NCBI GenBank assembly: GCA_020050835.1
Contig: JAGVKB010000103.1
Coordinates: forward strand, 1 to 64,000
Reading direction: 5' to 3'
Length of the DNA stretch: 64,000 nt
Source: Candidatus Obscuribacterales bacterium
GTDB taxonomy: Bacteria > Cyanobacteriota > Vampirovibrionia > Obscuribacterales > Obscuribacteraceae
Positions 23,602-42,075 of this stretch are shown here, piece after piece. The notes under the pieces were generated by a model, which was not told the DNA's origin, searched no databases, and saw only the letters and a list, made by a program, of their open reading frames with translations. Made by a program: the position numbers and the translations under genes. The number at the start of each line of letters is the position of its first letter. Position 1 is the first letter of the stretch.

Positions 23602-23741
23602 GGCACAGTGCACTCCTTCGCGGTCGTCCCGTTTGTCTTGACCGCACTGCAAAAAGTGAGCGGCCGAAGGCGCGCAAGTTTTACTGCTGCCGTCTATTGC
23701 CCGCCTTGGCTCGCAGCCAAAATAGCGGGGCAAGTCAAGAC
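23593..23741. other. Hairpin-rich non-coding region
   Basis: Contains CTGTGC/GCACAG (about 23593-23608), TTGGCT/AGCCAA (about 23706-23720) and a long-range pair GTCTTGAC/GTCAAGAC (23635-23642 and 23734-23741). No gene is supported from 23432 to 23927. It could be a small RNA or an upstream control region. Confidence 0.35.
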
Positions 23742-26032: not shown

Positions 26033-27301
26033 ATGAATGATTTTCGATTTGTTCACGCAGCAGATCTCCACATTGATAGTCCCTTCAAAGGAGTCACTGC
26101 GCAATCGAAAACGGTAGCAGAAGCTTTGCAGAACGCTACGCTACAAGCATTTGATAACATCGTAGACCTGTGCATCGACAGCGAAGCAGACTTTCTAATC
26201 GTTGCCGGCGATGTTTATGACGGCGCCGATAGAAATATTCAGCCGCAACTTGCCTTTTATGACGGGCTTAAGCGTCTAGCGGATAAAGGTATCCGGTCCT
26301 TCGTCATTCATGGCAATCACGATCCACTAGGCGGTTGGGCAGCGTCATTGGATTGGCCGGATGCGGTCACAATTTTTGCTAGTCGTGTTGAGTCCTATAC
26401 CTTTGAAAAAGGCGGACACGAAGTCGCAACGCTGGCGGGCATCAGCTACCAGAATTCACGTGAGGATCGTAATCTGGCCAGATTACTCGCTGCATCAGAC
26501 TCTGCGCGTAGGAGTGATCTCTTCCAGATCGCCGTCCTTCACTGCAATGTGGGCGGAGACAAGGCGCATGCAAATTACGCACCGTGCTCGCTGGATGAAT
26601 TGATCGGGCATCAGTTTGATTACTGGGCATTGGGACACGTGCACGAGCGTAAGGTAATGTGTCAAGAACCGTGGGTTGTGTATCCAGGGAATTCGCAGGG
26701 TCGCAGCGTCCGCGAAACAGGTGCTCGCGGATGTTACCTGGTTGAAGTTTCTGGCAAACGATCGCTGCGTTTAGAATTTATGTCTACTGATTGCGTCCGT
26801 TGGATGCTAGGTGAGGTTGATGTTAGTAGCATCGGTGCTCTGAACCAGCTTGAACAATCGCTTTGCGCAAAGGCGGAGGAGCTGGCCAAGGACTCACAAG
26901 GACGACCGATCATTTGTCGGTTGGGGCTGGTCGGGCGGTCGTCGTTGTATCACGAAATGAATGATCCACAACGGCTTCAGGATCTTACGCATTCTGTGCG
27001 GGCCAAGCTACAGCATTTGAAGCCATTCGTCTGGGTAGAGTCAATTGATTTTGACTGTCGACCACAGATTGATATTGAGCAAGCTCGGGAGCGCGAAGAT
27101 TTGCTCGGATTCGTACTCAAGGAAGGCAGTACGATTGCGCAGTGCTCAAACTTATCAGCCGAGGTCAGTGAACTCTTAAAGCCACTGTTCCAAACCAATG
27201 CATTGGGCCGGTCAATGCTGAGTATGCCTAGCGATACGGAACTTAAGAAGCTGTTAGAAGAGGCGGAATTGGCGTGTATTGATCTGCTGGAGAACGGATA
27301 A
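26033..27301 (+). CDS. Mre11/SbcD-like nuclease (YhaO type)
   Basis: A calcineurin-like phosphoesterase of the DNA exonuclease branch. Metal ligands are seen in order: D11 and H13 (ADLHID), D60 (AGDVYDG), N95/H96 (GNHDP), H170 (VLHCN), H202 and H204 (GHVH). The ~200 residues after this are typical of YhaO/SbcD capping regions. Its stop overlaps the start of the ATPase gene (TAATG), the usual arrangement for a Mre11-Rad50-like pair. First gene of a nine-gene rightward cluster. The substrate is probably DNA ends or invading DNA. Confidence 0.9.
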   Translation: MNDFRFVHAADLHIDSPFKGVTAQSKTVAEALQNATLQAFDNIVDLCIDSEADFLIVAGDVYDGADRNIQPQLAFYDGLKRLADKGIRSFVIHGNHDPLGGWAASLDWPDAVTIFASRVESYTFEKGGHEVATLAGISYQNSREDRNLARLLAASDSARRSDLFQIAVLHCNVGGDKAHANYAPCSLDELIGHQFDYWALGHVHERKVMCQEPWVVYPGNSQGRSVRETGARGCYLVEVSGKRSLRLEFMSTDCVRWMLGEVDVSSIGALNQLEQSLCAKAEELAKDSQGRPIICRLGLVGRSSLYHEMNDPQRLQDLTHSVRAKLQHLKPFVWVESIDFDCRPQIDIEQAREREDLLGFVLKEGSTIAQCSNLSAEVSELLKPLFQTNALGRSMLSMPSDTELKKLLEEAELACIDLLENG

Positions 27302-30300
27302 TGCACATCAGCGAGATTAACATCACCGGATTCGGCATATTTGCGAATTTCACCATGAGTAAGATCTCGCCAGGGCTCGTGGTTATATGTGGCGACAATG
27401 AAGCTGGGAAGTCAACATTGCTCAACTTCGTGAGAACTATGTTCTTCGGACCATCACCTAAACGATCCGATAAGAAGTGGCCACCCGTGCGCGGTGGCAC
27501 GCATGGTGGCAGCCTAATTGTTGAAACCAGGGAAGCTGAGAGACTAACAATTAATAGGCGCCTTACCGGACGTCAAACAGATTTGCAGCTGTTCGACAAG
27601 CTTGGTAGAAACATCGATGCAAGTAAGCTGGATGATCTGTTATCCGGTGCAACAAGGGAGCTTTTCACAAACATTTATGGGTTTAGCCTCTACGAGTTGC
27701 ATGAGATAGAAATGCTGGAGTCCGAGCAGGTGAAAGCCGCGCTCTATGGCGCTTCTCTTGGGTCTAGCATTTCGGCCTTGCCGCGGGCCCAACAAAAGAT
27801 TGACAAGCGTATAGATGAGTTGTTTAAGACTCGAGGTACCGATCCATTACTAAACAAGAAGCTGGCTGAATTGAGTGATCTCAAAGAAACTATAGAGCAA
27901 GTTTCGGACAGCGTGAAGGCGTATGAGGATCTTCAAATCCAAATCACCGAATTGGACAGGCAAATCAGAAAAGAAGAAGTCCAACTGGAAACGAAGGATG
28001 AGGAACTTGCAAATCTTCGACTCTTACTCAAGCACTATCCGGACTGGCTAGTCTTGCAGTCAACGAGAGCGGAACTGCTACAAATTCCGAAAGAGGTGCG
28101 CGCAATGTCAGACGACATCGCGCAAGCGTTTGAGAAAAACATGTCATTGGTGAATGTATACGAGGAGAAACTATTAGAGGCTCAAGGCACCTATGATAAG
28201 TCCGCGGTAGAGATGGAATCCCTTAGACCGAACGAATCGATTCTTGCAAATCAACAAGAGATCACAAGACTCTTCCGAGTACAACAGCAAGCTTCACTGT
28301 CGTTAGACAACGCTGATACTCTCAACAGAGAACTAGTCGGGCTTGCGGATAAGATGTCGGCGCATATTCAGATTCTTGGAGCAGGATGGGATAGCGCTCG
28401 TATTCGGAAAATTCGGGCCCTGGAGATTGACACGTCCGTCATTCTAGATTATCAAAGTAAGTTTTCGGATCTGGAGAGCCGACAGAAATCTTCGGAATCA
28501 GCTACAGAACAGACAAAGGCGCAGCTCGCTGAGCGAATACAGATACTCGAACAAAAGAGAAAAGAACTTGCCAATATCGTTCTGGATGAGACTCAGTACG
28601 ATAAGCGGATCGAAAAATCGATTCGAGCAGGATTGGACAAATTCGTCAGTTGTGCTTCTCGACTAATTCCGAAACGACAGGAGGAAGCAACTCTACGGGC
28701 GACCGTGGAGCAGTCATGCAAGCAAATGCTGGAATCGCTGCAGGCAACAACCTTGCCCTCATGGTTGTCATTTATGACGAATGTCGTTGCGGGCGCGACT
28801 CCATGCTTGAGCGATGTGGAGAGCACAAAAACGATCAAAGCGGAAGTGGTGGCGAATCACAAGGAGGTCATGTCCAAAGCAAGTCACGATCGTGTCTCTA
28901 CTGATAAGCAAGTAGCTGCGTGTGAAGCAGAACTCGCTAAACTACTTGTAGACGAGCAAGACCTTGGAGTTCAACAAGGTGGCTTGCCTTCTCCAGACGA
29001 AATTCCTTCCGCAGAACTCATTCAGGATATTCGAGAGCAATTGATCAGGCTTGAGCAAGCTGCCGGTACGAGGGCGGAATGTCGCCAGGATATGGATACC
29101 CAGCAAGCTAATTATGTCACGCAAAAGAAGGACCTGGGCATGGATATTGAAGATCAGATTCTTCGATCCATTGACCTGGTTTCATTACGGTCGGCGACCG
29201 CAGCACATAAGGACAACTGCAAGAATCTGGAGAAACAGATTTCCGAGGGAAAGACCACACAACGAATACTTGACCAAGCGAAGGAATCACTGCAAACGAA
29301 CTATGATCGCGTACAACTGAAACTCACCGAACTCCCGCCAGAAGTGACGGACTCAATGGAGCCAGATGAGAGACTGAGGGAACTAGAACGTCTTAAGGAG
29401 CGGCTGTCGAGACTTAAGGATGTCGACTTGAGGCTTGAGTATACGCGGCAACGTCTGGATGACATGAAAGTTTCGCGAAGCAAACTCATGGAATCGGTTC
29501 AAGCAAAGAATCAGCGACAGGCACAAATAGCGGTTGCCGCTGCGCTGCTGCTGGGAATTGGGCTAGCCACAGTTCTCGGGATTTATGTGAATTGGCCGGT
29601 CGGAGCGATAGCTCTTGCCTTGGTCGTCGTAGGAGCAATAGTAATTGTCCGTTCAGCAAGAAAAGGCACTGACACGCTAAGTGCCGTCGGAGAGATTGAT
29701 GAACAAATCAATACCCTAGAACGTACTTACAGTGAGGATCAGAAAAGCAGGAAGGAAATACATGAGGAGGTAGTTGCCGCTGCGTCCGCACTCAATACAG
29801 ATCCCAGTGTTTCGCTCGAAAAAGTGGATGAATATGTCGGGGAGGTCCGGGCTTACAAGCGCGCATCAGAGGAGCGTACCCAATTACTGTCCGAGACAGC
29901 TGGACTTTTAGAGGCGATTACGGAAAAGGATAGGCTGCTAAACGAAACTCAAGAAGCGCTGGCGCTGCTACAGGCAGAACTCAGCGCGGAACTGGAGCAA
30001 TTGCAAACTCACTTCGCACAGGCTCAGGTTCCTTTGGGCGAGGATCCCTCGAAAGATATTCAGAATATTGAGAAGCTACAAGCGTCATTAGAGCTATTGC
30101 AAGCCAGCAAGGCACGGGATATTCAAGCTTCGAATAATTTTTCATCGGTTGTGCGACTGGTGTGCCAAAAGTTATGCATTGATGAAGCTCTAGATCAGGT
30201 ACAGCTTATCGCAGCAGCAAATCGGTGGATACAAGAGGCGGAAGTACTACGGAAGAATGTGCAAGAAAGAGAAATTATCTGCGATCGTTCGCAGCAACTG

Positions 30301-32070
30301 TCAATACGCCTGGCTGAGAAAAGAAGGGAACTTGACGACCTGAAAACTCGGCTATCTGAATGTGACAAACACTGCCGTGATCAACAAGCCGAGTGGGCGC
30401 GCTGGTTACAGGAATTGGAAATTCCAGGGAGCTGTTCTTATGACGGTGTACTGCGGTTCGCGGATGAATTGGCAGCTGTAACGCCGACGCTCGAAAGACT
30501 AATTGTGATCGTGGAGGAGCTCGGGCTGCTCCTTGCGGATATCAGTGAGTATAAGGCGATGGTACAAGAAGTACCCGCGCTTCGCGAGGCGTGTGGTCAA
30601 GACGACACTCGACTGATGGAAGGACCGATAAGGACTTTCTTGGATTCGTGCGATGTTCAAGAGGAACTGAGCAAGAAGCAAGCGTTGCTGCTGAAGGAGG
30701 TCGAAGGTGCTACCAACGCCAAGGAAGATTTCGAAAAGTCTCTTCGAAATGCGGAAGAGGAGGTTGGCCGCGTGCTTGATGGCAGGCAAAGAATTAGTAA
30801 TGAATGGAAAGGATGGTTGATTGCTCAGGAACTAGACTCTTCGATGGATCCGTCATCCGCCGATAGCCTACTGAAAAAGGTCCAAGATGCCGCTAGTACG
30901 GATTCTCAAATTGAAACCAAGCAAGCAACCTTGAGGACATGCGAAGAGTTTGTTCGCAAATTCAATGATGATGTTCGACGGTTGGTGGACATTCTCGACA
31001 GACAAGAACCTGCGAATAAGGATTTCTCAGGGGAGTCCATGAGGATATACAAGGAGCTGCAGGAAGAGAACCAAAAGAAAGCCAAGTTTGAGAGTGCAGC
31101 GGAAGTGGCTGCAGCACAGAAGGCAGCCGTGGATAAGGCACGGGAGGAACTATCGCAGACTCAACAGGAAATGGACCGGCAATTGACTGAATTCGGATGT
31201 GCATCGACGGATGATTTCCGCTCGCGATATGAGTCTTACAAACGCGTAGAAGAACTCGTTCGAAACGAGCGCAACAGTGAGGAAACCTTGTTCAAGCTTC
31301 TTGGTGTGCAAGACGTACAGGGACTTGAAGATAAATATTCAAAGTTTGATGCAGATGAAGCGGCGGGAACAGTGCAAGGTTTGGAACGCAGCGTGAACTC
31401 TCTCAAGGAAAAGATCAATGGCATTGCAGATGGTGACGCTAGTGGAGACCCAGGCTTACGGCATCAGCTTTCTTCTCTGATCACGCAGCGTGAGAATCTA
31501 AAGAAGTCAGAAGACCTGCGGAAACTAAGGTTGAATGAGCAGAGATTGATTGCCGAAGCAGGTAATCTCGCCAACGAATGGATTCGACTGATGCTTGCAA
31601 GCTGTCTATTGGACAAGGCAAGAGAGAGGTTCGAGAAAGAAGGTCAGCCACATGTGGTGGACCTGGCATCTCAATACTTTGAGCACATTACCGGCGGATC
31701 CTACACGCGCGTTATTGCCAGCCCGGAAGGTCGGTCAGGAAAGATTGAGGTTCTTAGCAGGAACAACGAGCGATTGAGCGTTGATGTGCTCAGCACTGGA
31801 ACTCAAGAACAGCTATATCTTTGTCTGCGCTTTGCATTTGTCAATCATAGGGCCACTACATGCGAACCATTGCCGATCATTATGGATGATGTTTTGGTCA
31901 ACTTTGATGCCAATCGTGCGATGGCTGCAGCTCAGACAATATGTAAGTTGGCAGAATCCCATCAAGTTTTGTTTTTTACATGTCATCCCGCAACCGTCAA
32001 GCTCTTGCTGGATGGGAAGTCTGATACACCGATGGTGAAAATAGAAGCGGGCAGCCTTATAGCCGTATAA
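27301..32070 (+). CDS. Rad50/SbcC-like ATPase (YhaN type)
   Basis: At 1589 residues this is a long-armed SMC-like ATPase. Walker A is GDNEAGKST (31-39); the C-terminus has the signature LSTGTQEQLYLCLRFA and Walker B PIIMDDVLVNFD, with FFTCHP as the switch. Between them is ~1400 residues of coiled coil, interrupted by two hydrophobic helices (AQIAVAAALLLGIGLATVLG and then PVGAIALALVVVGAIVIV), as in YhaN, so the arm apex is probably membrane inserted. It should power the YhaO-like nuclease. A membrane-bound nuclease complex next to ZorAB genes is notable. Confidence 0.9.
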   Translation: MHISEINITGFGIFANFTMSKISPGLVVICGDNEAGKSTLLNFVRTMFFGPSPKRSDKKWPPVRGGTHGGSLIVETREAERLTINRRLTGRQTDLQLFDKLGRNIDASKLDDLLSGATRELFTNIYGFSLYELHEIEMLESEQVKAALYGASLGSSISALPRAQQKIDKRIDELFKTRGTDPLLNKKLAELSDLKETIEQVSDSVKAYEDLQIQITELDRQIRKEEVQLETKDEELANLRLLLKHYPDWLVLQSTRAELLQIPKEVRAMSDDIAQAFEKNMSLVNVYEEKLLEAQGTYDKSAVEMESLRPNESILANQQEITRLFRVQQQASLSLDNADTLNRELVGLADKMSAHIQILGAGWDSARIRKIRALEIDTSVILDYQSKFSDLESRQKSSESATEQTKAQLAERIQILEQKRKELANIVLDETQYDKRIEKSIRAGLDKFVSCASRLIPKRQEEATLRATVEQSCKQMLESLQATTLPSWLSFMTNVVAGATPCLSDVESTKTIKAEVVANHKEVMSKASHDRVSTDKQVAACEAELAKLLVDEQDLGVQQGGLPSPDEIPSAELIQDIREQLIRLEQAAGTRAECRQDMDTQQANYVTQKKDLGMDIEDQILRSIDLVSLRSATAAHKDNCKNLEKQISEGKTTQRILDQAKESLQTNYDRVQLKLTELPPEVTDSMEPDERLRELERLKERLSRLKDVDLRLEYTRQRLDDMKVSRSKLMESVQAKNQRQAQIAVAAALLLGIGLATVLGIYVNWPVGAIALALVVVGAIVIVRSARKGTDTLSAVGEIDEQINTLERTYSEDQKSRKEIHEEVVAAASALNTDPSVSLEKVDEYVGEVRAYKRASEERTQLLSETAGLLEAITEKDRLLNETQEALALLQAELSAELEQLQTHFAQAQVPLGEDPSKDIQNIEKLQASLELLQASKARDIQASNNFSSVVRLVCQKLCIDEALDQVQLIAAANRWIQEAEVLRKNVQEREIICDRSQQLSIRLAEKRRELDDLKTRLSECDKHCRDQQAEWARWLQELEIPGSCSYDGVLRFADELAAVTPTLERLIVIVEELGLLLADISEYKAMVQEVPALREACGQDDTRLMEGPIRTFLDSCDVQEELSKKQALLLKEVEGATNAKEDFEKSLRNAEEEVGRVLDGRQRISNEWKGWLIAQELDSSMDPSSADSLLKKVQDAASTDSQIETKQATLRTCEEFVRKFNDDVRRLVDILDRQEPANKDFSGESMRIYKELQEENQKKAKFESAAEVAAAQKAAVDKAREELSQTQQEMDRQLTEFGCASTDDFRSRYESYKRVEELVRNERNSEETLFKLLGVQDVQGLEDKYSKFDADEAAGTVQGLERSVNSLKEKINGIADGDASGDPGLRHQLSSLITQRENLKKSEDLRKLRLNEQRLIAEAGNLANEWIRLMLASCLLDKARERFEKEGQPHVVDLASQYFEHITGGSYTRVIASPEGRSGKIEVLSRNNERLSVDVLSTGTQEQLYLCLRFAFVNHRATTCEPLPIIMDDVLVNFDANRAMAAAQTICKLAESHQVLFFTCHPATVKLLLDGKSDTPMVKIEAGSLIAV

Positions 32071-32220
32071 GCCTGCTGCTTCGTTTAGGTGAGGTGGGGT
32101 GTGAGCACAGGTGCGAGGACATATAGTAACTAATTGGAACGGGTCGTTGCCAAGCGGTGCACATATTCTGCAGTGTGACCCGCTACGATTGGAATAGAGG
32201 CAGCCAAGCCAGGTTGTAAG

Positions 32221-34107
32221 TTGATAGCTCTGGTTGAGTTCCGGGAACAACTGGCCTGGTTGGGCTATTTGGACCGCGGGGAGGTAAAGGACCAGGTGTT
32301 AGCATGGTTTGAAAATTTACTTCCGTGGTTAGCGAGTTCATCGTCCATTTTGGGCATGCCGTGGGCAGCGGTAGTTTTTGCAGTCCTTTCGTTTGCCTTG
32401 TTTGCCTGGAACTTAATTTCTCTGGCAATCGAAACGTCGCTAGTGAGTTTTGCGCTTGAGAGTGCTCTTGCGCAGGTAAGAAAGTCTCCGTGTCCGTTGA
32501 CTTCGAAGGGATTGCAGGAATTACATAAGGGTCTTTCCCCCAGCAAGATTTTGGGAGAAGCCTGGACTGAATTTTATGAGACACTAATTTACCCAGATCC
32601 GATGTCGGAACCGGATGGAAAGGTTCTGAATGTGCGTCAGTCCAACGAGCTTTTGAACGAAGCTACGATTGCGGGAGAGCACTTAGATTTCGGATGGTAT
32701 GGGGCCGTTCCGGGGATGCTTACGGCCCTTGGACTGACAGGGACGTTCGTTTCGTTGTACCTCGCACTCTCATCGCTGCAAATTGATGTGGGCTCTGGAA
32801 TGATTCTCGATGCGCATCTATCGGCATTCATCAACAATCTTGCGGGTAAGTTTGTATCGTCGATCTGTGGGATTGGCTTCGCCATCGTATTTGTGATGGC
32901 TGAGAAGTGGAGTATGGGGGGTATACACAAGGGCTGTGCTGCACTCCAGACTGAGCTAAACAAGCGCTGTACATACGGGTCGCAAGAGGTGCTTCTGCAT
33001 GATGTTTCTGCAAAGATCCAGGAAGCCTGTCAGGCTGTTGCTGGATTAAAAGCAGAGCTTCCGCGATACATCAATGAAGGTCTTGAGACTTCTGTGTCGG
33101 GTCCCATTGCACAAATTGTTTCGCGTGTAGACGAACTCGCCAATATCGTGGACGAGCAAGCAAAAAAACGGGAAGAGTCAATAACACGGCTCGTCACCAC
33201 AGTAGTCCAAGCTTTCAAGCAGGCACTATTCGATGCAACAAACAAAGAATTCGACTTGCTAGCTACCGCACTAAGTAAAACGTCAGGAATAGTCGACAGC
33301 CTTAACGAAAAACTGTCGCAGTCGATTGGACAACAAGAATCTTTGATCAAAGCGCAGAAAGATCAAACGGATGCGTTCGTCAAGGGAACTCGTGATGCTC
33401 AGATTCAGTTGATGGACACATTGAAAGATCATTGCGAATCACTGCTGAAGGCACAGTCAACTGAAATTGAGACACTATTGCAGTCGATTCAAACCGCATC
33501 GAATCAGATGGTGAAGTCAAATGAACGTGTATCAGATGCGCTACTCAGTAAACTGAACGAGCATATAGCGAAGTTCATCTCCCAGATGGAGTCAAATTCT
33601 TCGAAGCAACTGCAGCTAATGCAGAATTCTCATGAGTACATGGTCAATAATCTGGAGACATGGATCGCTAGCGCGACGGAAGACTTACAGAGGCTCGTAA
33701 AACATATTGGTGAAGAGTCTCTGCGTGCAGAAGAGAGTATAACGAAAGTTGCACAAAACATTGCTGCACTAGAAAACCTTGCTCAGTCCAATTCGAAGAT
33801 ATCCTCGGATGGGACTGCTGTGATTGGTGCACTACAGGACATTCTCAAGTCTGTTGCAGAAGCGAACGTTACCGTCAATAAGAATTTCAGCCAGGCTGAA
33901 TCCTTTGTTCTCGAACTAGGTGACTGCTACAAACAACATAGAGATCTGATGGCTGCACAGGAGCAATTCATCGAAAAGGCTGTAGGAGCTTATGAACGGC
34001 TGGGGCTGGCAATCACAGTCTCGAACGGATCCGAGCGCTCTGATGAGAGCGTGGCAACAGCAGTCGTAGCTAGCTCGGGCGGAGACGGCAGTACCACGGA
34101 GCGGTAG
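32221..34107 (+). CDS. ZorA-like MotA/ExbB-family motor protein
   Basis: Three hydrophobic helices: about 48-70, 160-184 and 206-226. The second and third carry the ZorA/MotA pattern GAVPGMLTALGLTGTF and FINNLAGKFVSSICGIGFA. Residues ~235-600 form a long coiled coil, as in Zorya ZorA, where it projects as a cytoplasmic tail. It should pair with the ZorB-like protein to form a proton-driven stator-type motor. The only plausible start in frame is TTG 32221, with CCAGG eight bases upstream; a stop lies upstream at 32176. It is separated from the ATPase gene by 150 bases. Confidence 0.85.
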   Translation: MIALVEFREQLAWLGYLDRGEVKDQVLAWFENLLPWLASSSSILGMPWAAVVFAVLSFALFAWNLISLAIETSLVSFALESALAQVRKSPCPLTSKGLQELHKGLSPSKILGEAWTEFYETLIYPDPMSEPDGKVLNVRQSNELLNEATIAGEHLDFGWYGAVPGMLTALGLTGTFVSLYLALSSLQIDVGSGMILDAHLSAFINNLAGKFVSSICGIGFAIVFVMAEKWSMGGIHKGCAALQTELNKRCTYGSQEVLLHDVSAKIQEACQAVAGLKAELPRYINEGLETSVSGPIAQIVSRVDELANIVDEQAKKREESITRLVTTVVQAFKQALFDATNKEFDLLATALSKTSGIVDSLNEKLSQSIGQQESLIKAQKDQTDAFVKGTRDAQIQLMDTLKDHCESLLKAQSTEIETLLQSIQTASNQMVKSNERVSDALLSKLNEHIAKFISQMESNSSKQLQLMQNSHEYMVNNLETWIASATEDLQRLVKHIGEESLRAEESITKVAQNIAALENLAQSNSKISSDGTAVIGALQDILKSVAEANVTVNKNFSQAESFVLELGDCYKQHRDLMAAQEQFIEKAVGAYERLGLAITVSNGSERSDESVATAVVASSGGDGSTTER

Positions 34108-34117
34108 AGGTTGAGAG

Positions 34118-34876
34118 ATGCGTACCAGCTCACACGAATCACCATTCCTCGCATCCATCACGGACCTGATGACTTCACTTGCAGTGATTTTCATTCTCTT
34201 GCTAGTTCTTTTGATTGCACATTACTCCCGGCAGATTGCAGTTCTAAAGGAACAAATACAACGGGTTCAGAGCGTGAAGGATGAACTGAAGTCGGAACTT
34301 GAAAAAAAGGGTTATAAGGCAGAAGATGACCCTAGGGACGTACTTGCGATCGTCTACCATGCCCAGAGCGAGAAGCTGCAATTCGATGTGGATAAAGCAG
34401 ATATGAAAGAGGCAGGACAGACCTTTCTCAGAGACTTCATTCCGAGACTAGTCGATGTTATTGGGGAGAAGAAGTTCTTAACGAATGTGGAGTCAATTCT
34501 CATAGAAGGGCACACTGATTCGGATGGCGATGACGAGCACAATTTAAAGCTTAGCCAGGACAGATCGTTTGCAGTGTTGAAGTTCGGACTCAACGGCTGC
34601 GGTTTAAATCCACGGAACCGTGAGCACTTTCTATACCTAACATCTATCAGCGGAAGAGGCAAACGGGGACTGTTACCTCTCGGCGCTAGGCCGGGCTTTG
34701 AGAATAAGACTCGCAGCCGCAGGGTTGAATTTGTCATAAGACTGAAGTCATTTGAGCAGCATGCCGACGCTAGAAGTCTGCTCAATGAGGAGAGCAAATC
34801 AGGAGAAGGTGCGAAGGTCGTGCCGGGATCGGCAAGACCAATGCCAGCGCCAGCTGGTAGAGCACCATTACTTTAA
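34118..34876 (+). CDS. ZorB-like MotB/OmpA protein
   Basis: A single TM helix (about 18-36) is preceded by D16 in SITDLMTSLAVIF, the position of the proton-carrying Asp of MotB/ZorB. A short coiled stalk leads to an OmpA-type peptidoglycan-binding domain (IEGHTDSDGDDEHNLKLSQD, residues ~129-149, and a SRRVEF end). It should anchor the ZorA-like channel to the cell wall. The gene starts ten bases after zorA-like. Confidence 0.88.
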   Translation: MRTSSHESPFLASITDLMTSLAVIFILLLVLLIAHYSRQIAVLKEQIQRVQSVKDELKSELEKKGYKAEDDPRDVLAIVYHAQSEKLQFDVDKADMKEAGQTFLRDFIPRLVDVIGEKKFLTNVESILIEGHTDSDGDDEHNLKLSQDRSFAVLKFGLNGCGLNPRNREHFLYLTSISGRGKRGLLPLGARPGFENKTRSRRVEFVIRLKSFEQHADARSLLNEESKSGEGAKVVPGSARPMPAPAGRAPLL

Positions 34877-34888
34877 GAGGAGAAAAAA

Positions 34889-35710
34889 ATGGCCTATACA
34901 GCAGAAATTAGCAGAAACAATCCGACCTGTTTAGTTTTCATGATTGATCAATCTGGTTCAATGGCTGATGCTTTACCTGATGGCTCGGGACAGAAGGCGA
35001 ACGCTGTTGCAGATGCAATCAACAAGCTGCTTCAAAACTTCATTGTTAGAAACACTGCAACTGAGGTTGTGTATGATAGGTTTCATATATCCGTAATTGG
35101 ATACGGCACCACAGTCGGACCAGCATTTGGAGGCGCTCTTAAAGGAGAGGGCATCGTCCCGCTTAGTGTTATAGCTGAGCATCCGCGCATGGAAAGTAGA
35201 ATGAAGAAGATGTCTGATGGTGCCGGGGGAGTCTTCGAACAGCAGGTCACTTTTCCCGTTTGGTTTGATCCAATAGCCAATGGATCTACTCCAATGGGAC
35301 AGGCATTTGATCAAGCGGCTGCGGTCGTTTCGGGCTGGCTCTCAGCGCATCCCGGTTGTTTCCCACCCATCGTCCTAAACATTTCCGACGGAGAACCAGA
35401 TGCTGATCCTACCAGTGAGGCCGATCGACTAAAACGCCTGAGCAGCAATGATGGTGAGGTGCTGGTCTTCAATGCACACGTTTCATCGGAAGGTGGTGCC
35501 CCTATCAAGTACCCGGAAAGCGATGCCGGGCTCCCAAATCCTAATGCGAAGCTTCTGTACAAGCTAAGTAGCGTGCTACCACAAAAGATGCGCGACCTTG
35601 CCAAGCCAGAATTTCAATTACCAGAGAATTCGCGAGGGTTTGTTTACAACGGTGACCTAGTAGACATTATCAATTTTCTCGATATCGGTACAAGGGTGGC
35701 TGCGAGGTGA
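34889..35710 (+). CDS. TerY-type von Willebrand A protein
   Basis: A vWA domain with complete metal site: DQSGS (20-24), T134 (GSTPMGQ) and D167 (NISDGEPD). TerY/YegL-type vWA proteins occur with a PP2C phosphatase and a kinase as the TerY-P triad, which is exactly the order here. AGAGGAG lies six bases before the ATG. The protein is cytoplasmic (no signal or TM). It may be the phosphorylated switch or scaffold of the triad. Confidence 0.9.
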   Translation: MAYTAEISRNNPTCLVFMIDQSGSMADALPDGSGQKANAVADAINKLLQNFIVRNTATEVVYDRFHISVIGYGTTVGPAFGGALKGEGIVPLSVIAEHPRMESRMKKMSDGAGGVFEQQVTFPVWFDPIANGSTPMGQAFDQAAAVVSGWLSAHPGCFPPIVLNISDGEPDADPTSEADRLKRLSSNDGEVLVFNAHVSSEGGAPIKYPESDAGLPNPNAKLLYKLSSVLPQKMRDLAKPEFQLPENSRGFVYNGDLVDIINFLDIGTRVAAR

Positions 35711-35717
35711 CTAGCGC

Positions 35718-36473
35718 ATGCAATTGTTGGTGCGTCAGTACGTAGTGCCAAAGGAGGGAAACAGCGAATCTGAATGTGAAGACGCCTGTTCGGATCCCAT
35801 GCCGGACGGTCAATTAATTCAGCATTTTGCTGTTGCCGATGGTGCGACGACTTCGGCGTTTTCTAGATATTGGGCAACCTTGCTGGTCAGTGCATACAGC
35901 GTAGGTGATTTCCTCGGCGACAAGATCGAGGATTGTGTGTCTGAACTTCAGAGGCAATGGCATGAGCACGCGACCGGCCGTGCAAGGAGCTGGTTCGTTA
36001 AAGAGAAAATCCTTGGGGGTGCACACGCAACTCTCGTAGGATTGACGCTCTTCGACAAAGAAGCTGACTCCGACTTGGCAGGAAAGTGGCGCGCTCTTGC
36101 TGTGGGTGACGCGTGCCTATTTCACGTGCGGAATGGAAACTTGCTGGAATCCTTTCCTATCTTGGATGCTAAAGGATTTGATAATTCGCCGGTGCTTATC
36201 TCAAGCATCCATCCACCAAGTAGGGTTAAGAGTGACTTGCTGGAGCGGGAAGGAGACTGGTTACCCGGCGATATCTTTTTGCTTATGACAGACGCTATCT
36301 CTTCCTGGCTACTGTCAAACCATAAGGAAGGAGTTGATCTCCTTGAGCGTCATGCAGGCACAAAGGAGGATTTTCAACACTTGATCGACGAGTTACGTAA
36401 GGCCAGGGATTTGGAGGGAGTGCCGATTCTAAAGAATGACGACGTTACTCTGATGCGAATAGAAGTTTCATGA
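35718..36473 (+). CDS. PP2C-family protein phosphatase
   Basis: PP2C metal and catalytic motifs appear in order: E21/D22 region, ADGAT (40-44), AVGDACLF with D131, LMTDAIS with D192 and NDDVTLM with D241/D242. The usual TDG is TDA. Length 251 fits YegK-type phosphatases. It should reverse phosphorylation by the kinases encoded next. The gap to the vWA gene is seven bases. Confidence 0.88.
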   Translation: MQLLVRQYVVPKEGNSESECEDACSDPMPDGQLIQHFAVADGATTSAFSRYWATLLVSAYSVGDFLGDKIEDCVSELQRQWHEHATGRARSWFVKEKILGGAHATLVGLTLFDKEADSDLAGKWRALAVGDACLFHVRNGNLLESFPILDAKGFDNSPVLISSIHPPSRVKSDLLEREGDWLPGDIFLLMTDAISSWLLSNHKEGVDLLERHAGTKEDFQHLIDELRKARDLEGVPILKNDDVTLMRIEVS

Positions 36474-36482
36474 TGGGTTGAC

Positions 36483-37898
36483 ATGTTCCTACCAAACGCG
36501 CAGCAATACCAAGAAGCAGTGCAGAATCCGCGATTCGTGTTCGACGATCCCGAGCTGAAGTTGTGCGTGCCGTATGTAAATAAGTTCAATATGCCGATTA
36601 GTTCCGCGGGCGGCTTCGCAATTGTCTTTAAATTCAAAGGTACCGGAAGGGATTGGGCAGTACGCTGTTTTACGCGTGCGGCTGGAGATCAGGAACAAAG
36701 ATACGCTGCCATTAATGCCCACATCAAAAGCTGCAAGCTTCCGTACACGGTGAGCTTTGACTATCTCAGAAAGGGCATCTTGGTCAATGGGAAGTGGCAT
36801 CCGATACTAAAGATGGAGTGGGCTGAGGGCCAGCGACTAGACTCGTTTATCTGCACTCATCTTAATCAACCTGACAAGCTCGTTGACATGTCCCATGCAT
36901 GGCTGAAGATGGCTGCGGATTTGAAAGCCGCTGGTATTGCGCATGGCGACTTGCAGCATGGAAATGTGTTGGTACACAATGGGCGATTACGTCTAGTGGA
37001 CTACGATGGTATGTATGTGCCGAGTCTTCGGGGTAAACCGGCGAACGAAGTCGGCCACCGCAATTATCAGCACCCTTCAAGAAATCAAAAACACTTCGAC
37101 TTGTACCTGGACAACTTCTCGGCGTGGGTCGTCTATATGTCGATGGTCGCGCTGTCGGTCGAACCCATGCTATGGACTAAGCGAACAGATGACGAGAGTT
37201 TGCTAGTTGGATCTACGGATTATCATAATCCTGGGCATTCACAAGCACTGATTCATCTGCGTTCGCACAGTGATGCACGAATCAAATCACTGTCAGCAAA
37301 ACTCGTGGATATGCTGTCAGTCCCAGTGGAGAAAGTACCGGAGCTGACACCCACGACCGTCGGCACTATGCCAGCTAAGGTCGGGGCACTCCCTGCTTGG
37401 TTATATGCTTACAAAACCGCCGGAGCTCCTGCAAGCAATTTGTGTCCTCGCTGTAAAGGTAACCTGGTTAAGAAGACTCACCGACAACTTCAAATGCAGT
37501 TTTGGGAGTGTTCTAATGCACCTGCTTGCCCTTACAGGCGCGCTGACTCCGACGGCGTGCAGCCGACAGTAAGTCAGCCACTTCCGGCATCCGGAACGCT
37601 ATTCCCGGGGCCGCAATCGGCAACAAATGTTGGGACAACCAGTACACCAAATCCGATCATTTCATCAACTCCGGTAGCAACGCCCACGTCTGGTGTATCG
37701 CAGTCTCCTAAGAAGCGAGGACGAAAACCTTCGACGTCAACAACAAAGACACGGACGCGGAAGCGGTCCACGCCATTGGTGACTCTCGCTATTGACGAAT
37801 GTGACATTTGTGGAAGCAAGCTACAGGTAGTGAACGGTGCGCAGAGTTTTTATGTGTGCACAAACTATCCTGCGTGCAATTTTACCAAGCCTTGTTAG
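36483..37898 (+). CDS. YegI-type protein kinase with two zinc ribbons
   Basis: A eukaryotic-type Ser/Thr kinase domain (about 35-285): SAGGFAIVFK loop, catalytic loop HGDLQHGN (D156, N161) and VDYDGMYVP with D173. The ATP-binding Lys position reads AVRCF, with R61 in place of Lys. The C-terminus has two topoisomerase-type zinc ribbons (CPRCKGNLV ... CSNAPACPY and CDICGSKL ... CTNYPACNF) joined by a Pro/Ser/Thr linker with a basic KKRGRKPS motif. These ribbons may bind nucleic acid, giving a possible sensor. Third member of the TerY-P triad. Confidence 0.9.
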   Translation: MFLPNAQQYQEAVQNPRFVFDDPELKLCVPYVNKFNMPISSAGGFAIVFKFKGTGRDWAVRCFTRAAGDQEQRYAAINAHIKSCKLPYTVSFDYLRKGILVNGKWHPILKMEWAEGQRLDSFICTHLNQPDKLVDMSHAWLKMAADLKAAGIAHGDLQHGNVLVHNGRLRLVDYDGMYVPSLRGKPANEVGHRNYQHPSRNQKHFDLYLDNFSAWVVYMSMVALSVEPMLWTKRTDDESLLVGSTDYHNPGHSQALIHLRSHSDARIKSLSAKLVDMLSVPVEKVPELTPTTVGTMPAKVGALPAWLYAYKTAGAPASNLCPRCKGNLVKKTHRQLQMQFWECSNAPACPYRRADSDGVQPTVSQPLPASGTLFPGPQSATNVGTTSTPNPIISSTPVATPTSGVSQSPKKRGRKPSTSTTKTRTRKRSTPLVTLAIDECDICGSKLQVVNGAQSFYVCTNYPACNFTKPC

Positions 37899-37907
37899 GT
37901 GACCTCA

Positions 37908-40202
37908 ATGCAATGGCCATCAGCAGCCCGATACAGCAGCGCACTCATGGAGTCGAGAAAGTGTCTCGACGATAAAGAGTTGCGTGCCGCCGAACTCAGT
38001 CTGGATTGGTGGTCTGGGCAGCCGTACTGTGTTACGGGCGATTCCGCCGTTGTTTACCAACTAATAACGAAGAAACAATCCTTTGCTATCAAGTGCTATA
38101 CGACTGACATTCCATCACTAATTGAGCATTACCAGCAATTACAAATGTTCTTTTATAGCAGGCGTAATCAGCTGTTTGTGTCACCAGAAATTATTCCGAA
38201 GGGGATTCAGATCAGCAAGCAACGCTTTCCGATCTTGAAAATGGATTGGGTTGAGGGAAAAACACTCAGGCAATACGTCTCAGAGAACATCAACAAGCCG
38301 AACGTGCTGCTGGAAACAGCTCATAAACTAGCACAGGCCGCAGCTGTACTCAGGGACTATAACTTTGTCCATGGGACCGTGAATCCCGACAACGTTCTTG
38401 TTACCAAGGACGTACTGAAGTTAGTTGATTATGATTTCTCATTCGGCGCCGGAATTCAGATGCCACTCTATCGGCCGGCAGAAAGCTTGTTCCTGCACCC
38501 CCAGTGCAAGGATGGATCAAGTTTGAACGACAATTTCGCTTTCCATGTCCTGTGCACGACGCTAATCGTATTGGCCTTTGAACCGCAGCGCCTACGGCAG
38601 TCCGACGGGCTTGTATTTCAGCAAGAGGACTTCAAAGATCGCGAAGGGTCCCAACTGTTTGCACATCTCCTGCAACATCCGCATGGAAAAGTAAGAGAGA
38701 CTTGTCAGCGCCTTGCTGAAGTTCTGACTATGCCCCCAGATGATGTGCCCGGTGTAGAGCCGGGCGCTGTGAGCACTGACATACCACTGATTGCGGTTCC
38801 GAAATGGCTTAAGTCTGACATTGGCTCGCAAGGCGAGACTACTGCGTTGGATCACGGGCAAGATCAGCGGCAGAACGAAGTGACGACCTTGAGAGATTAT
38901 AGGACCGAACTGCAGGAGGTCTTATCGTCCATAAAACCCTCGTCGCAGCCCGGACAGGTCAATGTGCTTGGGCTTACACCTGCGGTGGCGAGGATAATTG
39001 CTCCCGTATCGATCATTCTCATGCTGTGTAGTCTAGTTGCGATGGCCCACTACTTTTGGCTGAGTGTTTTGTTCGATTTGTCCATGATCTTGGCAAACGT
39101 GGGTCTATGGTACCACTTGTACAGCATCGATCCTGAGATTCACGCAATGAGGGCAAGCCAGGAGTCGCTGACCAGCAGCCTTACAAGGCTTCATTCAATT
39201 CAAGAATACCTTTCCGAGCTTGCCTCACAAATCGATTACGACGGACGCGTGCTTGATACCGAGGTAGTCGAGGAGTTAAAAAGGCAAAAGACAATTTGCA
39301 TTTCCGCAAGTTCGCAGCTGGCTACGATACGAGGTGCTGTTTCACAAAAGCTGGCGGCGCTAGCCACTGCGCACCAGGCAAGAATAGCGTTGCTTTCGGA
39401 GACACGGCGGGGCGACGTTTCGGACCTGGAATCAAGCGTTGGTAAACGATTGGGAGAAATAAAGGAAGATCTGAGCGAAATCGCAGTCAAGGAAGCAATG
39501 GAGCTCAACGTAGCATTAGAAAGTGCGCAGCGACAATACCTAGAACGTGAACTACGAAATTGCACAATTGTAAGTTCATCGGTGATGGCGATTGACGAGA
39601 ACACTGCCGGTCTCTTGTCGGTCTCAGGAGTAAAGAGCGCATGGGATGTGGACGATAGTCGTTTGTCCACCGTGAACGGTTTAAAGCAGTCTGCTCATAA
39701 ATCGCTTGTTCATTGGCGTCGATACCACGAGAAGCAGGCAGAGCTTACGAAGCCCGTGTTTCTCAATGCCGCAGAAAAGGCAAGTGCGACCAAAGAGTTG
39801 AATAGAACTCGGAATCAGCTTCTGCAGGAACGGAAGCGACTAGAGGAGCATTATGACCAACAAAGGGAGGAAATCGAAGAGCTACATCGAATCGCGTCAC
39901 TCCAGCTAGAACGGTTACGCGGGCAAGCCGACGCTCAGGCACGGAGGGATGCAGAGATTGAAAGCTGGCAGAGCAGTCTAGACTGCGCTGTTACAGAGAG
40001 CAAGAGATTGGAACAACACATCGCTGTTGAGCGTGCACGGCTCAGCAAGATAAGAGCAGAGATCGAGGATGGGAAGAGAGACTGTGTTTCCAAAGTACAG
40101 ACCCTGGAAGGGATGCTCGAATCGTCTGCTCCTGCGAGCTTCAAGGAATATGTGCGAGGACTATTGCGGTACTCGGGTAGGTCAAGGGCGAATAACGCCT
40201 AG
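37908..40202 (+). CDS. Membrane-anchored coiled-coil pseudokinase
   Basis: The first ~290 residues follow the same kinase fold as its neighbours and keep the ATP Lys (FAIKCY, K62), N162 and D174, but the catalytic HGD is HGT (H155-T157 in HGTVNPDN), so catalysis is probably lost. Two adjacent TM helices lie near residues 358-405, then ~350 residues of coiled coil. ATG 37908 is preferred because AGGTGA precedes it; a GTG at 37899 directly follows the previous stop. It may act as a scaffold or allosteric partner tying the signalling triad to the membrane motor. Confidence 0.8.
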   Translation: MQWPSAARYSSALMESRKCLDDKELRAAELSLDWWSGQPYCVTGDSAVVYQLITKKQSFAIKCYTTDIPSLIEHYQQLQMFFYSRRNQLFVSPEIIPKGIQISKQRFPILKMDWVEGKTLRQYVSENINKPNVLLETAHKLAQAAAVLRDYNFVHGTVNPDNVLVTKDVLKLVDYDFSFGAGIQMPLYRPAESLFLHPQCKDGSSLNDNFAFHVLCTTLIVLAFEPQRLRQSDGLVFQQEDFKDREGSQLFAHLLQHPHGKVRETCQRLAEVLTMPPDDVPGVEPGAVSTDIPLIAVPKWLKSDIGSQGETTALDHGQDQRQNEVTTLRDYRTELQEVLSSIKPSSQPGQVNVLGLTPAVARIIAPVSIILMLCSLVAMAHYFWLSVLFDLSMILANVGLWYHLYSIDPEIHAMRASQESLTSSLTRLHSIQEYLSELASQIDYDGRVLDTEVVEELKRQKTICISASSQLATIRGAVSQKLAALATAHQARIALLSETRRGDVSDLESSVGKRLGEIKEDLSEIAVKEAMELNVALESAQRQYLERELRNCTIVSSSVMAIDENTAGLLSVSGVKSAWDVDDSRLSTVNGLKQSAHKSLVHWRRYHEKQAELTKPVFLNAAEKASATKELNRTRNQLLQERKRLEEHYDQQREEIEELHRIASLQLERLRGQADAQARRDAEIESWQSSLDCAVTESKRLEQHIAVERARLSKIRAEIEDGKRDCVSKVQTLEGMLESSAPASFKEYVRGLLRYSGRSRANNA

Positions 40203-40211
40203 AGGTGGATT

Positions 40212-41327
40212 ATGGGATGGCCATCAGCAGCTGAATATTTGGAAGCTTTGCAGTATCCGGAATTTAGTTTCGAAGATCCCGAGTTGCGCGGCGGTATTAC
40301 ACAGGTGGATAAGTTCGGGATGCCCGCCGTTAGCTCAGGACATTTCGCCAGCGTATTCTCTCTGGACTGTGCGGGTAAGCGGGTAGCTGTGAAATGCTTT
40401 CTGCAAAATCGTCCAGACCTTCGCCATAGGTACAAAGAAGTTGCGCACCATCTTACATCGTCGAAGCTTCCCTATACCGTGCAATTTGAATATATCGAGA
40501 GGGGAATTCAGATAGACCTGGCATGGTATCCGGTGCTCAAGATGGTATGGATTGAGGGAGATACGTTTCTTTCATACGTAGATAAGCACGTCAACGACAA
40601 ACCGAAACTTTTGGCGTTATCGTCACAGTTCAAGCAAATGCTTAAAAGGCTCAGCTATGCCGGTATTGCGCATGGTGACCTACAGCATGGCAACATACTC
40701 GTTGCCGGCGATAGTTTGAAGTTGGTTGACTATGATGGAATGTATGTTCCGGCGCTGAACGATCTTGAGGCGAATGAGAACGGACTCGGATGTTACCAGC
40801 ACCCGAAGCGAACTTCTAGACATTTTGGTCCCTATCTAGATAACTTCTCCGCTTGGTTGATTCACGCTTCTCTGGTTTGTTTGGCCATCGATCCGTCTCT
40901 TTGGGATGGACAAACTTTACAGCGAGAACATTTTCTGTTTCGGGAGGAAGATCTCCTAAATCCACCAGGTTCGGAACTACTGGAACGCTTGTCCACGCAT
41001 AGCTCTGCGCAGTTGAGGACTATTCCAGATACCCTTGACCGCTTGCTTAGAATGTCGCCTGAAGAAATTCCACCAATCGATGAGATTGCAATAACTGGCG
41101 TGCACATAGACCAGACTCTTGAAGAACACTTCAAGAAACTTGGGCTGCAGGCCTCGGCTTCCGAGAAGCAGATTCATGAGGCTGTCCAAGTCTGGCAACG
41201 GGTATGGGCACCGGAGCATTACAAACACAACAAAGGATTGGCAAAGAAAGCATCCGAAAAAATGGCGTCGATTAAGGAAGCGTTGGATGCAATTCGCCTT
41301 GCGGAGAAGGCGGCCGCTAGCGTCTAA
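40212..41327 (+). CDS. Protein kinase with degenerate J-like C-terminus
   Basis: A second complete kinase closely related to 36483-37898: SSGHFASVFS, VAVKCF with K61, HGDLQHGN (D156, N161) and VDYDGMYVP (D173). The C-terminal ~70 residues (LEEHFKKLGLQASASEKQIH, then VWQRVWAPEHY and SEKMASIKEALDAI) resemble a J domain in spacing, but the HPD is absent. No zinc ribbon. AGAGGTGG lies just before the ATG. Last gene of the cluster; it converges on the WYL genes 45 bases away. Confidence 0.85.
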   Translation: MGWPSAAEYLEALQYPEFSFEDPELRGGITQVDKFGMPAVSSGHFASVFSLDCAGKRVAVKCFLQNRPDLRHRYKEVAHHLTSSKLPYTVQFEYIERGIQIDLAWYPVLKMVWIEGDTFLSYVDKHVNDKPKLLALSSQFKQMLKRLSYAGIAHGDLQHGNILVAGDSLKLVDYDGMYVPALNDLEANENGLGCYQHPKRTSRHFGPYLDNFSAWLIHASLVCLAIDPSLWDGQTLQREHFLFREEDLLNPPGSELLERLSTHSSAQLRTIPDTLDRLLRMSPEEIPPIDEIAITGVHIDQTLEEHFKKLGLQASASEKQIHEAVQVWQRVWAPEHYKHNKGLAKKASEKMASIKEALDAIRLAEKAAASV

Positions 41328-41371: not shown

Positions 41372-42049
41372 TTACTCGTCGCGCACTCCGGTGCATTCAG
41401 TGATCGACGTCAAGGAGATTGATACACTGGATTCGTCTTCCGCATGGCCACAAAGATACCATTGGCAGTTCTGAAAGCTGAGAAACTGCGGCGACAGCTT
41501 ACGACAACGCTCCTCATTATTAGGGTGGGTAGCTATTTCCAGAGATTTCTTTGCATGACAGGCCTTGAGTAAGTTTAGAAAAAGCTTTAGGCTGATCGGT
41601 GGTGGCTTGTCTTGAAAAGAAATGGCTGCAGATAAGGTGAAGCACTCAGGGGCAAGCTTTTGAAGTGCACTGAAGGACAGAGGATCAAATGACGGACCAC
41701 CGTAATGCACGAGCATCTGTTGTCCAGTCAGCAGGAGGAGATATTCCTCGGTTGTTAATTGGAAGGCTGGAAGCTCTTGTCGCGGGCTGGCATTGTAGTA
41801 GCCATTACGTCCTTTGTGAAAGCGAATGTCCATTCCTAGCTTGTCTTTGAGTTCTCGGATATCCTGATAGAGGGTTCTGCGCTTAATTTCAAACATGGCA
41901 CAGAGATCGCTGACGCCGGGATATGTGCCCGCGCGGATACGCCTATCTATCAATACTAATCGTTCTAAGCGTGATGGCAAGTTGTGCCTGCGTGGAAATT
42001 GGCGACTGCTAATTCCAGCATAGTGGCCGCGGCTGCAAAATATATTCAC
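41372..42049 (-). CDS. Short WYL-type regulator lacking C-terminal extension
   Basis: An N-terminal helix-turn-helix (VSDLCAMFEIKRRTLYQDI) is followed by a WYL-like part (FQNCQWYLCGHAEDES), but the protein stops shortly after, at 225 residues against the usual ~320, so the WCX extension is missing. The frame begins with GTG and no clear ribosome site is seen. It lies 26 bases after the full-length WYL gene. It may be a truncated paralogue that modulates its neighbour. Confidence 0.7.
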   Translation of the reverse strand: MNIFCSRGHYAGISSRQFPRRHNLPSRLERLVLIDRRIRAGTYPGVSDLCAMFEIKRRTLYQDIRELKDKLGMDIRFHKGRNGYYNASPRQELPAFQLTTEEYLLLLTGQQMLVHYGGPSFDPLSFSALQKLAPECFTLSAAISFQDKPPPISLKLFLNLLKACHAKKSLEIATHPNNEERCRKLSPQFLSFQNCQWYLCGHAEDESSVSISLTSITECTGVRDE

Positions 42050-42075
42050 TGCCCGGATTGGCCGGGTAGAGTTTA

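What the first reader, a model, noticed from the sequence alone, without database searches (positions are those of the whole stretch)
26033..41327. Nine-gene cluster joining a Mre11-Rad50-like nuclease, a ZorAB-like motor and a TerY-P kinase/phosphatase module
Seen: nine rightward genes, mostly 7-12 bases apart or overlapping, encode in order YhaO-like nuclease, YhaN-like ATPase, ZorA-like, ZorB-like, vWA, PP2C, zinc-ribbon kinase, TM coiled-coil pseudokinase and kinase with J-like tail. Known: Zorya systems pair ZorAB with nucleases or helicases; TerY, PP2C and kinase form a conserved triad; Mre11-Rad50-type complexes sense DNA ends. Inference: this is a membrane-anchored anti-phage system in which the motor senses envelope disturbance, phosphorylation sets the threshold and the nuclease is the effector. 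I do not recognise the full set as a named system, but cannot search.
Basis: partly seen in the sequence, partly recalled or inferred. Interest (0 to 1): 0.92.

Follow-up and report, generated by a model that had tools for sequence, protein, structure and literature searches.

The report
Zorya-type motor operon with kinase module
A bacterial defence-type membrane motor (ZorAB), normally paired with DNA-cutting partners, is here encoded in one conserved seven-gene operon with a protein-phosphorylation module in their place, suggesting that phage attack at the cell surface could be relayed by kinases; the DNA-cutting pair next door is an optional neighbour.

Summary
All nine genes are present as described. 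They fall into two modules. ZorA-ZorB-TerY-PP2C-kinase-pseudokinase-kinase is a tight operon (gaps 0-12 nt) found in the same order in three genera of the host family, although ZorA identity falls to 32% and pseudokinase identity to 23%. In one of the three the contig ends inside gene six. The YhaO-YhaN pair is separate. It lies 150-225 nt upstream here. In a second genome it is divergent, with a RecD2 helicase gene and another gene between. It is absent from the third contig, and elsewhere it occurs without ZorAB. Among 14 ZorAB loci examined, ten carry ZorD (most also ZorC), three carry the TerY-P module instead, one carries neither, and none carries both. In the ZorAB tree the three form one clade beside type I Zorya. 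The motor aspartate, the polar ring and most peptidoglycan-binding residues are kept. Best reading: a Zorya variant in which TerY-P phospho-signalling occupies the ZorC/ZorD slot, with a conserved membrane pseudokinase. The nuclease pair is at most an optional partner. It sits in a defence island with a complete SIR2-HerA pair. No experiment supports function, other phyla could not be searched, and no held paper describes this combination.

The parts
32296..34107 (+). ZorA-like motor subunit (first listed start TTG 32221; GTG 32296 after GGAGG preferred); MotA/ExbB-type TM core with polar ring T175, S213/S214 and a long coiled C-terminal tail
   Evidence: PADLOC ZorA1 3.5e-24; PDB ZorA chains 8vvn 6.7e-16, 8qyk 1.7e-7; start and gap; conserved TM motifs
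34118..34876 (+). ZorB-like subunit: TM helix with conserved Asp16 and OmpA-type peptidoglycan-binding domain (GHTD, NL.LS..R, SRRVEF)
   Evidence: PADLOC ZorB1 1.5e-43; OmpA 2.2e-8; 8vvi 4e-15, 8qyd 1e-11; motif alignment over 13 ZorAB
34889..35710 (+). TerY-like vWA protein (DxSxS MIDAS motif DQSGS)
   Evidence: PADLOC TerY 1.1e-89; 58-76% identical in G028/G016
35718..36473 (+). PP2C-type phosphatase, metal-binding Asp motifs present (ADGAT, GD, NDD)
   Evidence: PADLOC PP2C 1.8e-24; PP2C_2 3.9e-6; sequence
36483..37898 (+). STK1: Ser/Thr kinase with catalytic HGDLQHGN, C-terminal Topo-type C4 zinc ribbons instead of an OB fold
   Evidence: PADLOC STK_OB 4.5e-76 over model 1-291 of 562 only; Zn_ribbon_Top1 9.2e-13
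37908..40202 (+). psK2: pseudokinase (HRD Asp replaced by Thr: HGTVNPDN) with TM segment(s) and long coiled-coil C-terminus; listed GTG start 37899, probable start ATG 37908
   Evidence: STK_OB 2.5e-37; HRD Asp lost in all homologues T/S/N; helical coiled-coil model, low confidence; start repeat
40212..41327 (+). STK3: Ser/Thr kinase, catalytic HGDLQHGN, short degenerate J-like tail (no HPD)
   Evidence: STK_OB 6.6e-73; DnaJ 0.004 below cut-off
26033..27301 (+). YhaO/SbcD/Mre11-like nuclease, all motifs intact; neighbouring module, not core
   Evidence: Metallophos 4.8e-16; sbcd 7.1e-17; motifs
27301..32070 (+). YhaN/Rad50-like ATPase, 1589 aa, with TM pair 743-786 in mid coiled coil; overlaps YhaO stop; neighbouring module, not core
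   Evidence: AAA_27 5.6e-21; Walker A 31, LSTGT 1497, LPIIMDD 1524; TM

Best explanation
A seven-gene Zorya-type defence variant, ZorA-ZorB-TerY-PP2C-STK1-psK2-STK3, in which a TerY-P phosphorylation module occupies the operon position that ZorC and ZorD hold in type I Zorya. Proposed working: ZorB senses or engages disturbed peptidoglycan at the site of phage entry and opens the ZorA5B2 ion motor (inferred from Zorya literature and from conserved residues). Rotation or rearrangement of the ZorA tail is passed in the cytoplasm to the membrane-anchored coiled-coil pseudokinase psK2, which scaffolds or allosterically controls the active kinases STK1 and STK3, while TerY (a metal-dependent vWA adaptor) and PP2C keep the pathway off or reset it (inferred). 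The output is phosphorylation of host or phage targets by the kinases, with the STK1 zinc ribbon possibly bringing it to nucleic acid (inferred). YhaO-YhaN is a separate end-processing nuclease module. It may be an extra effector where present, but it is not required. Shown here: gene content, order, spacing, conservation, replacement of ZorC/ZorD, intact motor and kinase sites, loss of the catalytic Asp in psK2. Not shown: antiphage activity, protein contacts, direction of signalling.
For: Same gene order with short gaps or overlaps in three genera (window; G016 split over contigs C27 and C233, the latter ending inside psK2; G028 contig C198) while ZorA identity is 50% and 32% and psK2 43% and 23%. 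Across 14 ZorAB loci, ZorD (+/- ZorC) in ten, TerY module in three, neither in one, never both; zorC follows zorB directly in the type I loci as terY does here. The three ZorAB form one clade (88/91; 100/99 with G011) next to type I G026. The TerY tree also groups the three (89/70), and both trees pair G000 with G016. Full-length psK2 matches occur only in these three of 50 family genomes. The psK2 HRD Asp is T, S or N while all 27 related kinases examined keep Asp. Motor Asp, Ser/Thr ring and peptidoglycan residues conserved match those needed for Zorya defence (PMC11890865). Neighbouring SIR2-HerA and WYL genes indicate a defence island.
Against: Only three genomes, one family, one clade; G016 is split between contigs. 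TerY-P is common in the family without ZorAB (30 of 50 genomes have TerY), so the triad has another life. A TerY-PP2C-TM-pseudokinase-kinase cluster without ZorAB exists (G028:C340, L146), so psK2-like proteins are not specific to the motor. No dedicated effector domain is recognised. No functional data.
Confidence: 0.6

Rival explanations
1. Nine-gene single system: motor senses, phosphorylation gates, YhaO-YhaN nuclease is the effector.
For: YhaON of this subtype is rare (three of 50 family genomes at 49% identity or more) yet lies within 5 kb of ZorAB in two of three ZorAB-TerY-P loci; nuclease and ATPase motifs intact; same strand, directly upstream here.
Against: G028 contig has the seven genes with no YhaON in 3.5 kb upstream or 5.8 kb downstream; G016 has it divergent with RecD2 and another gene between; G011 and other genomes have YhaON without ZorAB, one beside R-M, GmrSD-like and Mrr genes; gap of 150-225 nt in the window. 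G028 is only 66% complete, so absence elsewhere in that genome is unsure.
Confidence: 0.17
2. Composite defence island: ZorAB has lost its partners and merely sits in front of an independent TerY-P antiphage triad; no mechanistic coupling.
For: TerY-P works alone as antiphage module (Gao et al. as cited in PMC11090510); stand-alone triads are frequent in the family and in cyanobacteria.
Against: Tight co-operonic order preserved over deep divergence in three genera; genes overlap in G028; parallel ZorAB and TerY trees; full-length psK2 only with ZorAB.
Confidence: 0.13
3. Not defence: an envelope-stress or metal-stress signalling system in which a stator-like complex reports cell-wall state to a TerY-type phospho-switch.
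For: TerY-P triads are linked to metal sensing and stress (Anantharaman 2012 as cited in PMC11090510); kinase and TerY paralogues are numerous in this family in ordinary chromosomal settings.
Against: ZorAB clade nested with type I Zorya rather than MotAB/TolQR; patchy distribution (three of 50); SIR2-HerA and WYL neighbours.
Confidence: 0.1

Closest known systems
Zorya type I (ZorA-ZorB-ZorC-ZorD)
   Same: ZorA and ZorB homologous, same order, intact ion-channel and most peptidoglycan residues; ZorAB tree places the three beside a type I locus of the same family
   Different: No ZorC (EH signature) or ZorD (SNF2 helicase/nuclease); a vWA-PP2C-kinase-pseudokinase-kinase block takes their place
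Zorya types II and III
   Same: ZorAB core
   Different: No ZorE HNH nickase; no ZorF/ZorG
TerY-P triad (PADLOC TerY, PP2C, STK_OB; Gao 2020; Anantharaman 2012)
   Same: All three proteins present and adjacent with strong matches
   Different: Kinase ends in zinc ribbons rather than OB fold, as in CoCoNuT-associated TerY-P (PMC11090510); two extra kinases, one a membrane pseudokinase; joined to ZorAB
CoCoNuT types II/III-A with embedded TerY-P
   Same: TerY-P with zinc-ribbon kinase used as module in a larger defence operon
   Different: No McrBC-type GTPase, helicase or HEPN gene among the nine; motor instead
YhaO-YhaN / SbcCD / Mre11-Rad50
   Same: Genes 1-2 match in motifs, order and overlap
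   Different: Very long YhaN (1589 aa) with TM pair in mid coiled coil; a neighbour, not shown to be part of the system

Membership tests
Zorya (ZorAB core) | ZorA: MotA/ExbB-type TM core with long cytoplasmic tail | tested here: met
   PADLOC ZorA 3.5e-24; PDB ZorA hits; coiled tail from residue ~260
Zorya (ZorAB core) | ZorB: TM Asp and peptidoglycan-binding OmpA domain with H, T, L, R, R residues | tested here: met
   Asp16 and H132, T133, L145, R149, R201 conserved; the position of the last Arg (R259 of ZorB I) is Val206, with Arg at 208
Zorya type I | ZorC and ZorD encoded after zorB | tested here: not met
   No ZorC/ZorD match in window genes by PADLOC or phmmer; present in ten sister loci as positive control
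Zorya type II | ZorE HNH nickase | tested here: not met
   No ZorE match among the nine genes or the ten neighbours scanned
Zorya type III | ZorF (DUF3348) and ZorG (DUF2894) | tested here: not met
   No match
TerY-P triad | Adjacent TerY-type vWA, PP2C and Ser/Thr kinase | tested here: met
   1.1e-89, 1.8e-24, 4.5e-76, consecutive genes
TerY-P triad | Kinase C-terminal OB fold (antiphage form of Gao et al.) | tested here: not met
   STK_OB matches only model 1-291 of 562; C4 zinc ribbons instead
Antiphage defence system | Protection against phage in a test host | not testable with these tools
   No experiment; only defence-island context
SbcCD / Mre11-Rad50 type pair | Phosphoesterase motifs and Rad50-type split ATPase in overlapping genes | tested here: met
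   DLH, GDVYD, GNHD, HCN, GHVH; Walker A, LSTGT, LPIIMDD
SbcCD / Mre11-Rad50 type pair | Zinc hook at coiled-coil apex | tested here: inconclusive
   A TM pair lies at 743-786 in mid coiled coil; a zinc hook was not searched for
Functional J domain in gene 9 | HPD motif and DnaJ profile match | tested here: not met
   APE in place of HPD; DnaJ E 0.004 below cut-off; G028 tail no match

The most novel reading that the evidence does not exclude
A stator-type ion motor that senses phage attack at the cell wall and signals through a eukaryote-like kinase/pseudokinase/phosphatase cascade, with phosphorylation itself as the effector output in place of DNA cleavage: a Zorya type with a signalling rather than nucleolytic arm.
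Probability: 0.4. Interest if true: 0.8.

Novelty: new variant of a known kind. Interest (0 to 1): 0.62.

Why it matters
In Zorya the link between the membrane motor and the DNA-attacking proteins is not fully settled. A natural variant in which the nuclease arm is replaced by kinases would separate sensing from killing. It would test whether the ZorA tail is a general signalling output, and would give a motor whose activity could be read as phosphorylation. It would also extend TerY-P from a metal or stress and restriction accessory to a motor-coupled module. The conserved membrane pseudokinase is an obvious candidate adaptor to test.

Tried and rejected
(1) Nine genes as one operon: rejected as stated because of the 150-225 nt gap, the different G016 arrangement, and absence from the G028 contig. 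(2) YhaON as housekeeping in the family: rejected; the close subtype is in only three of 50 genomes and the wider one in a few more. (3) ZorB profile search over the phylum: swamped by MotB/OmpA proteins of Gastranaerophilales-like genomes and other cyanobacteria, little use. (4) ZorA in class Cyanobacteriia: no match in 390 genomes at 1e-10; TerY in 38 of 390, none of the 13 neighbourhoods fetched carrying ZorAB. (5) Plasmids, phages, IMG/VR: no ZorAB-TerY combination; TerY-P on Calothrix and Acaryochloris plasmids without ZorAB; one IMG/VR Zorya I. (6) Other phyla could not be used as a search centre. (8) Promoter scan: no excess over shuffles. (9) Papers: none found joining Zorya with TerY or Mre11 as a system; the 2012 TerY paper and Hu et al. 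Nature are not held, so prior mention cannot be excluded.

Full report
Setting. The window is contig C94 of a 7.0 Mb, 154-contig genome. Relatives in the same family and class carry titles such as Candidatus Melainabacteria and Vampirovibrio, and genome sizes suggest the Obscuribacteraceae of class Vampirovibrionia (the family name is my inference). No tRNA or integrase marks the edges of the cluster itself; a tRNA-Val lies at 46647.

Observation. All nine ORFs are present on the + strand. Pfam, NCBIfam and PADLOC scans give: Metallophos/SbcD for gene 1, AAA_27/AAA_23 for gene 2, ZorA, ZorB, TerY, PP2C, and STK_OB for genes 7, 8 and 9. Gene 1 has DLH, GDVYD, GNHD, HCN and GHVH, and gene 2 has Walker A, LSTGT and LPIIMDD, so both look catalytically intact; gene 2 has two TM segments at 743-786. 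Gene 7 has zinc ribbons (Zn_ribbon_Top1 9e-13) where the PADLOC STK_OB model has its OB half. Gene 8 has HGTVNPDN where active relatives have HGDLQHGN. Gene 9 has an intact kinase and a tail that hits DnaJ at E 0.004, below cut-off and without HPD. The likely starts are GTG 32296 for ZorA, after GGAGG, and ATG 37908 for gene 8, where the first 20 nt match the start of gene 9 at 90%.

Two modules. Gaps from ZorA to gene 9 are 10, 12, 7, 9, 0 (9 from ATG 37908) and 9 nt, but YhaN to ZorA is 150 or 225 nt. In G028 the same seven genes run ZorA-ZorB-TerY-PP2C-STK1-psK2-STK3 with overlaps of 4-14 nt or gaps of 8-9 nt; upstream is an AAA_21 ATPase and a WYL-type regulator, downstream a peroxidase, and no YhaON. 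In G016 contig C27 carries ZorA and the start of ZorB, and contig C233 carries ZorB-TerY-PP2C-STK1-psK2 up to the contig end; the contigs share about 180 nt with one mismatch. There YhaO-YhaN lies about 4.4 kb from ZorA on the other strand, with RecD2 and an unknown gene between. A YhaO of this subtype (49% identity or more) is in three of 50 family genomes: the window, G016 and G011. In G011 it sits beside type I R-M, GmrSD-like and Mrr genes with no ZorAB or TerY. More distant YhaON pairs in G006, G026, G041 and G004 also lack ZorAB and TerY nearby. G011 and G028 belong to the same genus, yet each assembly shows only one of the two modules. G028 is 66% complete, so this is suggestive only.

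The kinase module stands where ZorC and ZorD stand. I collected the genuine ZorAB loci found by searches of the family, class and IMG/VR and scored their neighbours. Ten have ZorD, most with a recognisable ZorC (G026, G086, G091, G069, G824, G082, G727, G058, IMG/VR contig, Vampirovibrio DET50b, the last with a partial ZorB). Three have TerY-PP2C-kinases and no ZorC/D. One, G011, has neither but has an Hsp70/MreB-like ATPase and an AAA+ gene upstream. PADLOC confirms G026 as ZorABCD, with ZorD 1e-209. A ZorA+ZorB tree puts the three TerY-linked loci together (88/91), G011 as their sister (100/99), and the type I locus G026 next (85/97). The simplest reading is that a type I-like ZorAB lineage in this family exchanged its downstream arm once. 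In the TerY tree the three also group (89/70), and in both trees the window pairs with G016 to the exclusion of G028, as expected if ZorAB and TerY have travelled together.

Motor residues. The ZorB TM Asp, the ZorA Thr and Ser/Thr ring positions and the ZorB GHTD, L, R and SRR residues are kept in all three. PMC11890865 reports that the corresponding ZorB D24, H186, L199, R203, R254 and R259 are needed for defence, that ZorAB is a 5:2 ion-driven motor and that the ZorA tail is essential. Only the R259 position differs here (Val, with Arg two residues on). The motor is therefore predicted to be functional.

Pseudokinase. In all three loci gene 8 has lost the catalytic-loop Asp (T, S, N), while all 27 other TerY-linked kinases examined keep it. 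Matches covering the whole psK2 profile occur in exactly the three ZorAB-TerY genomes of 50 (one cut by its contig end); all other listed matches cover essentially the kinase domain, although the family is rich in such kinases. A more distant TM pseudokinase (HGNISLDN) occurs in a TerY-PP2C-pseudokinase-kinase cluster without ZorAB in G028:C340, so a membrane pseudokinase is a recurring TerY-P accessory and not unique to the motor. The AlphaFold model (three rows, pLDDT 57) supports only the layout: kinase-like domain, TM helix at 361-381, long helices to the end.

Context. Downstream, on the other strand, are two WYL-type regulators (41372-43089) and a complete SIR2-HerA pair (43641-46087; PADLOC HerA 3e-169, SIR2 3e-124). 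TerY itself is common in the family (30 of 50 genomes) and present in 38 of 390 Cyanobacteriia genomes; in every TerY neighbourhood fetched outside the three loci there was no genuine ZorAB pair.

Mechanism proposed. Envelope damage engages ZorB; the ZorA5B2 motor opens; its cytoplasmic tail acts on psK2 at the membrane; STK1 and STK3 become active against PP2C, with TerY as adaptor; phosphorylation of host or phage proteins, perhaps near nucleic acid through the zinc ribbons, halts infection. The first two steps rest on Zorya work and conserved residues; the rest is inference from gene content. No nuclease is constant in the three loci, which argues for phosphorylation as output or for a host-encoded effector. 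YhaON may add DNA processing where present.

Limits. Three genomes in one family; one split assembly; no search of other phyla; the AlphaFold and literature resources were partial. No held paper joins ZorAB with TerY or kinases as a system, but the most relevant 2012 TerY paper and the Nature Zorya paper are not held, so I do not claim that the association has never been noted.

Noticed in passing
window 43641-46087 (-): Complete SIR2-HerA defence pair downstream of the cluster (PADLOC SIR2 3e-124, HerA 3e-169).
   Followed up: partly
window 41372-43089 (-): Two adjacent WYL-type regulators, the first apparently shortened; a 34% identical WYL-type protein lies near the G028 locus (L020:2649-3093), so a shared regulator is possible.
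   Followed up: partly
L146:2715-9054 (G028:C340): TerY-PP2C-TM coiled-coil pseudokinase-large kinase cluster without ZorAB, with a J-like protein nearby: a second TerY-P form with a membrane pseudokinase.
   Followed up: partly
L022:5208-14001 and L023 (G011:C61): ZorAB sister clade without ZorC/D, preceded by genes for a radical-SAM-like protein (by eye), an AAA+ ATPase, a HEAT-repeat protein and an Hsp70/MreB-like ATPase: possibly another Zorya variant.
   Followed up: partly
L156:1354-15381 (IMGVR_UViG_3300042516_006151) and L173 (G058:C1): Type I-like Zorya next to a Cas9-like gene (HNH_4, weak RuvC_III) with Cas1 and Cas2; one copy is on a contig filed as viral.
   Followed up: partly
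G028, G011, G015, G023 genomes: Large expansion of TerY-type Ser/Thr kinase paralogues (up to 21 or more scored matches per genome) in this family.
   Followed up: no
L070:3294-7921 (G016:C70): Caspase-domain (Peptidase_C14) protein, and a second that looks similar by eye, downstream of a YhaN C-terminal half, probably the rest of the G016 YhaN gene.
   Followed up: no
window 18100-18243 and 23465-23608: 144-nt direct repeat, 84% identical, 5.4 kb apart, upstream of the cluster; may mark an insertion or recombination.
   Followed up: no
window 20871-22517, 22622-23677, 24755-25273: DUF4365 protein, GP88-domain protein and a staphylococcal-nuclease-like gene upstream: further island-type content.
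   Followed up: no
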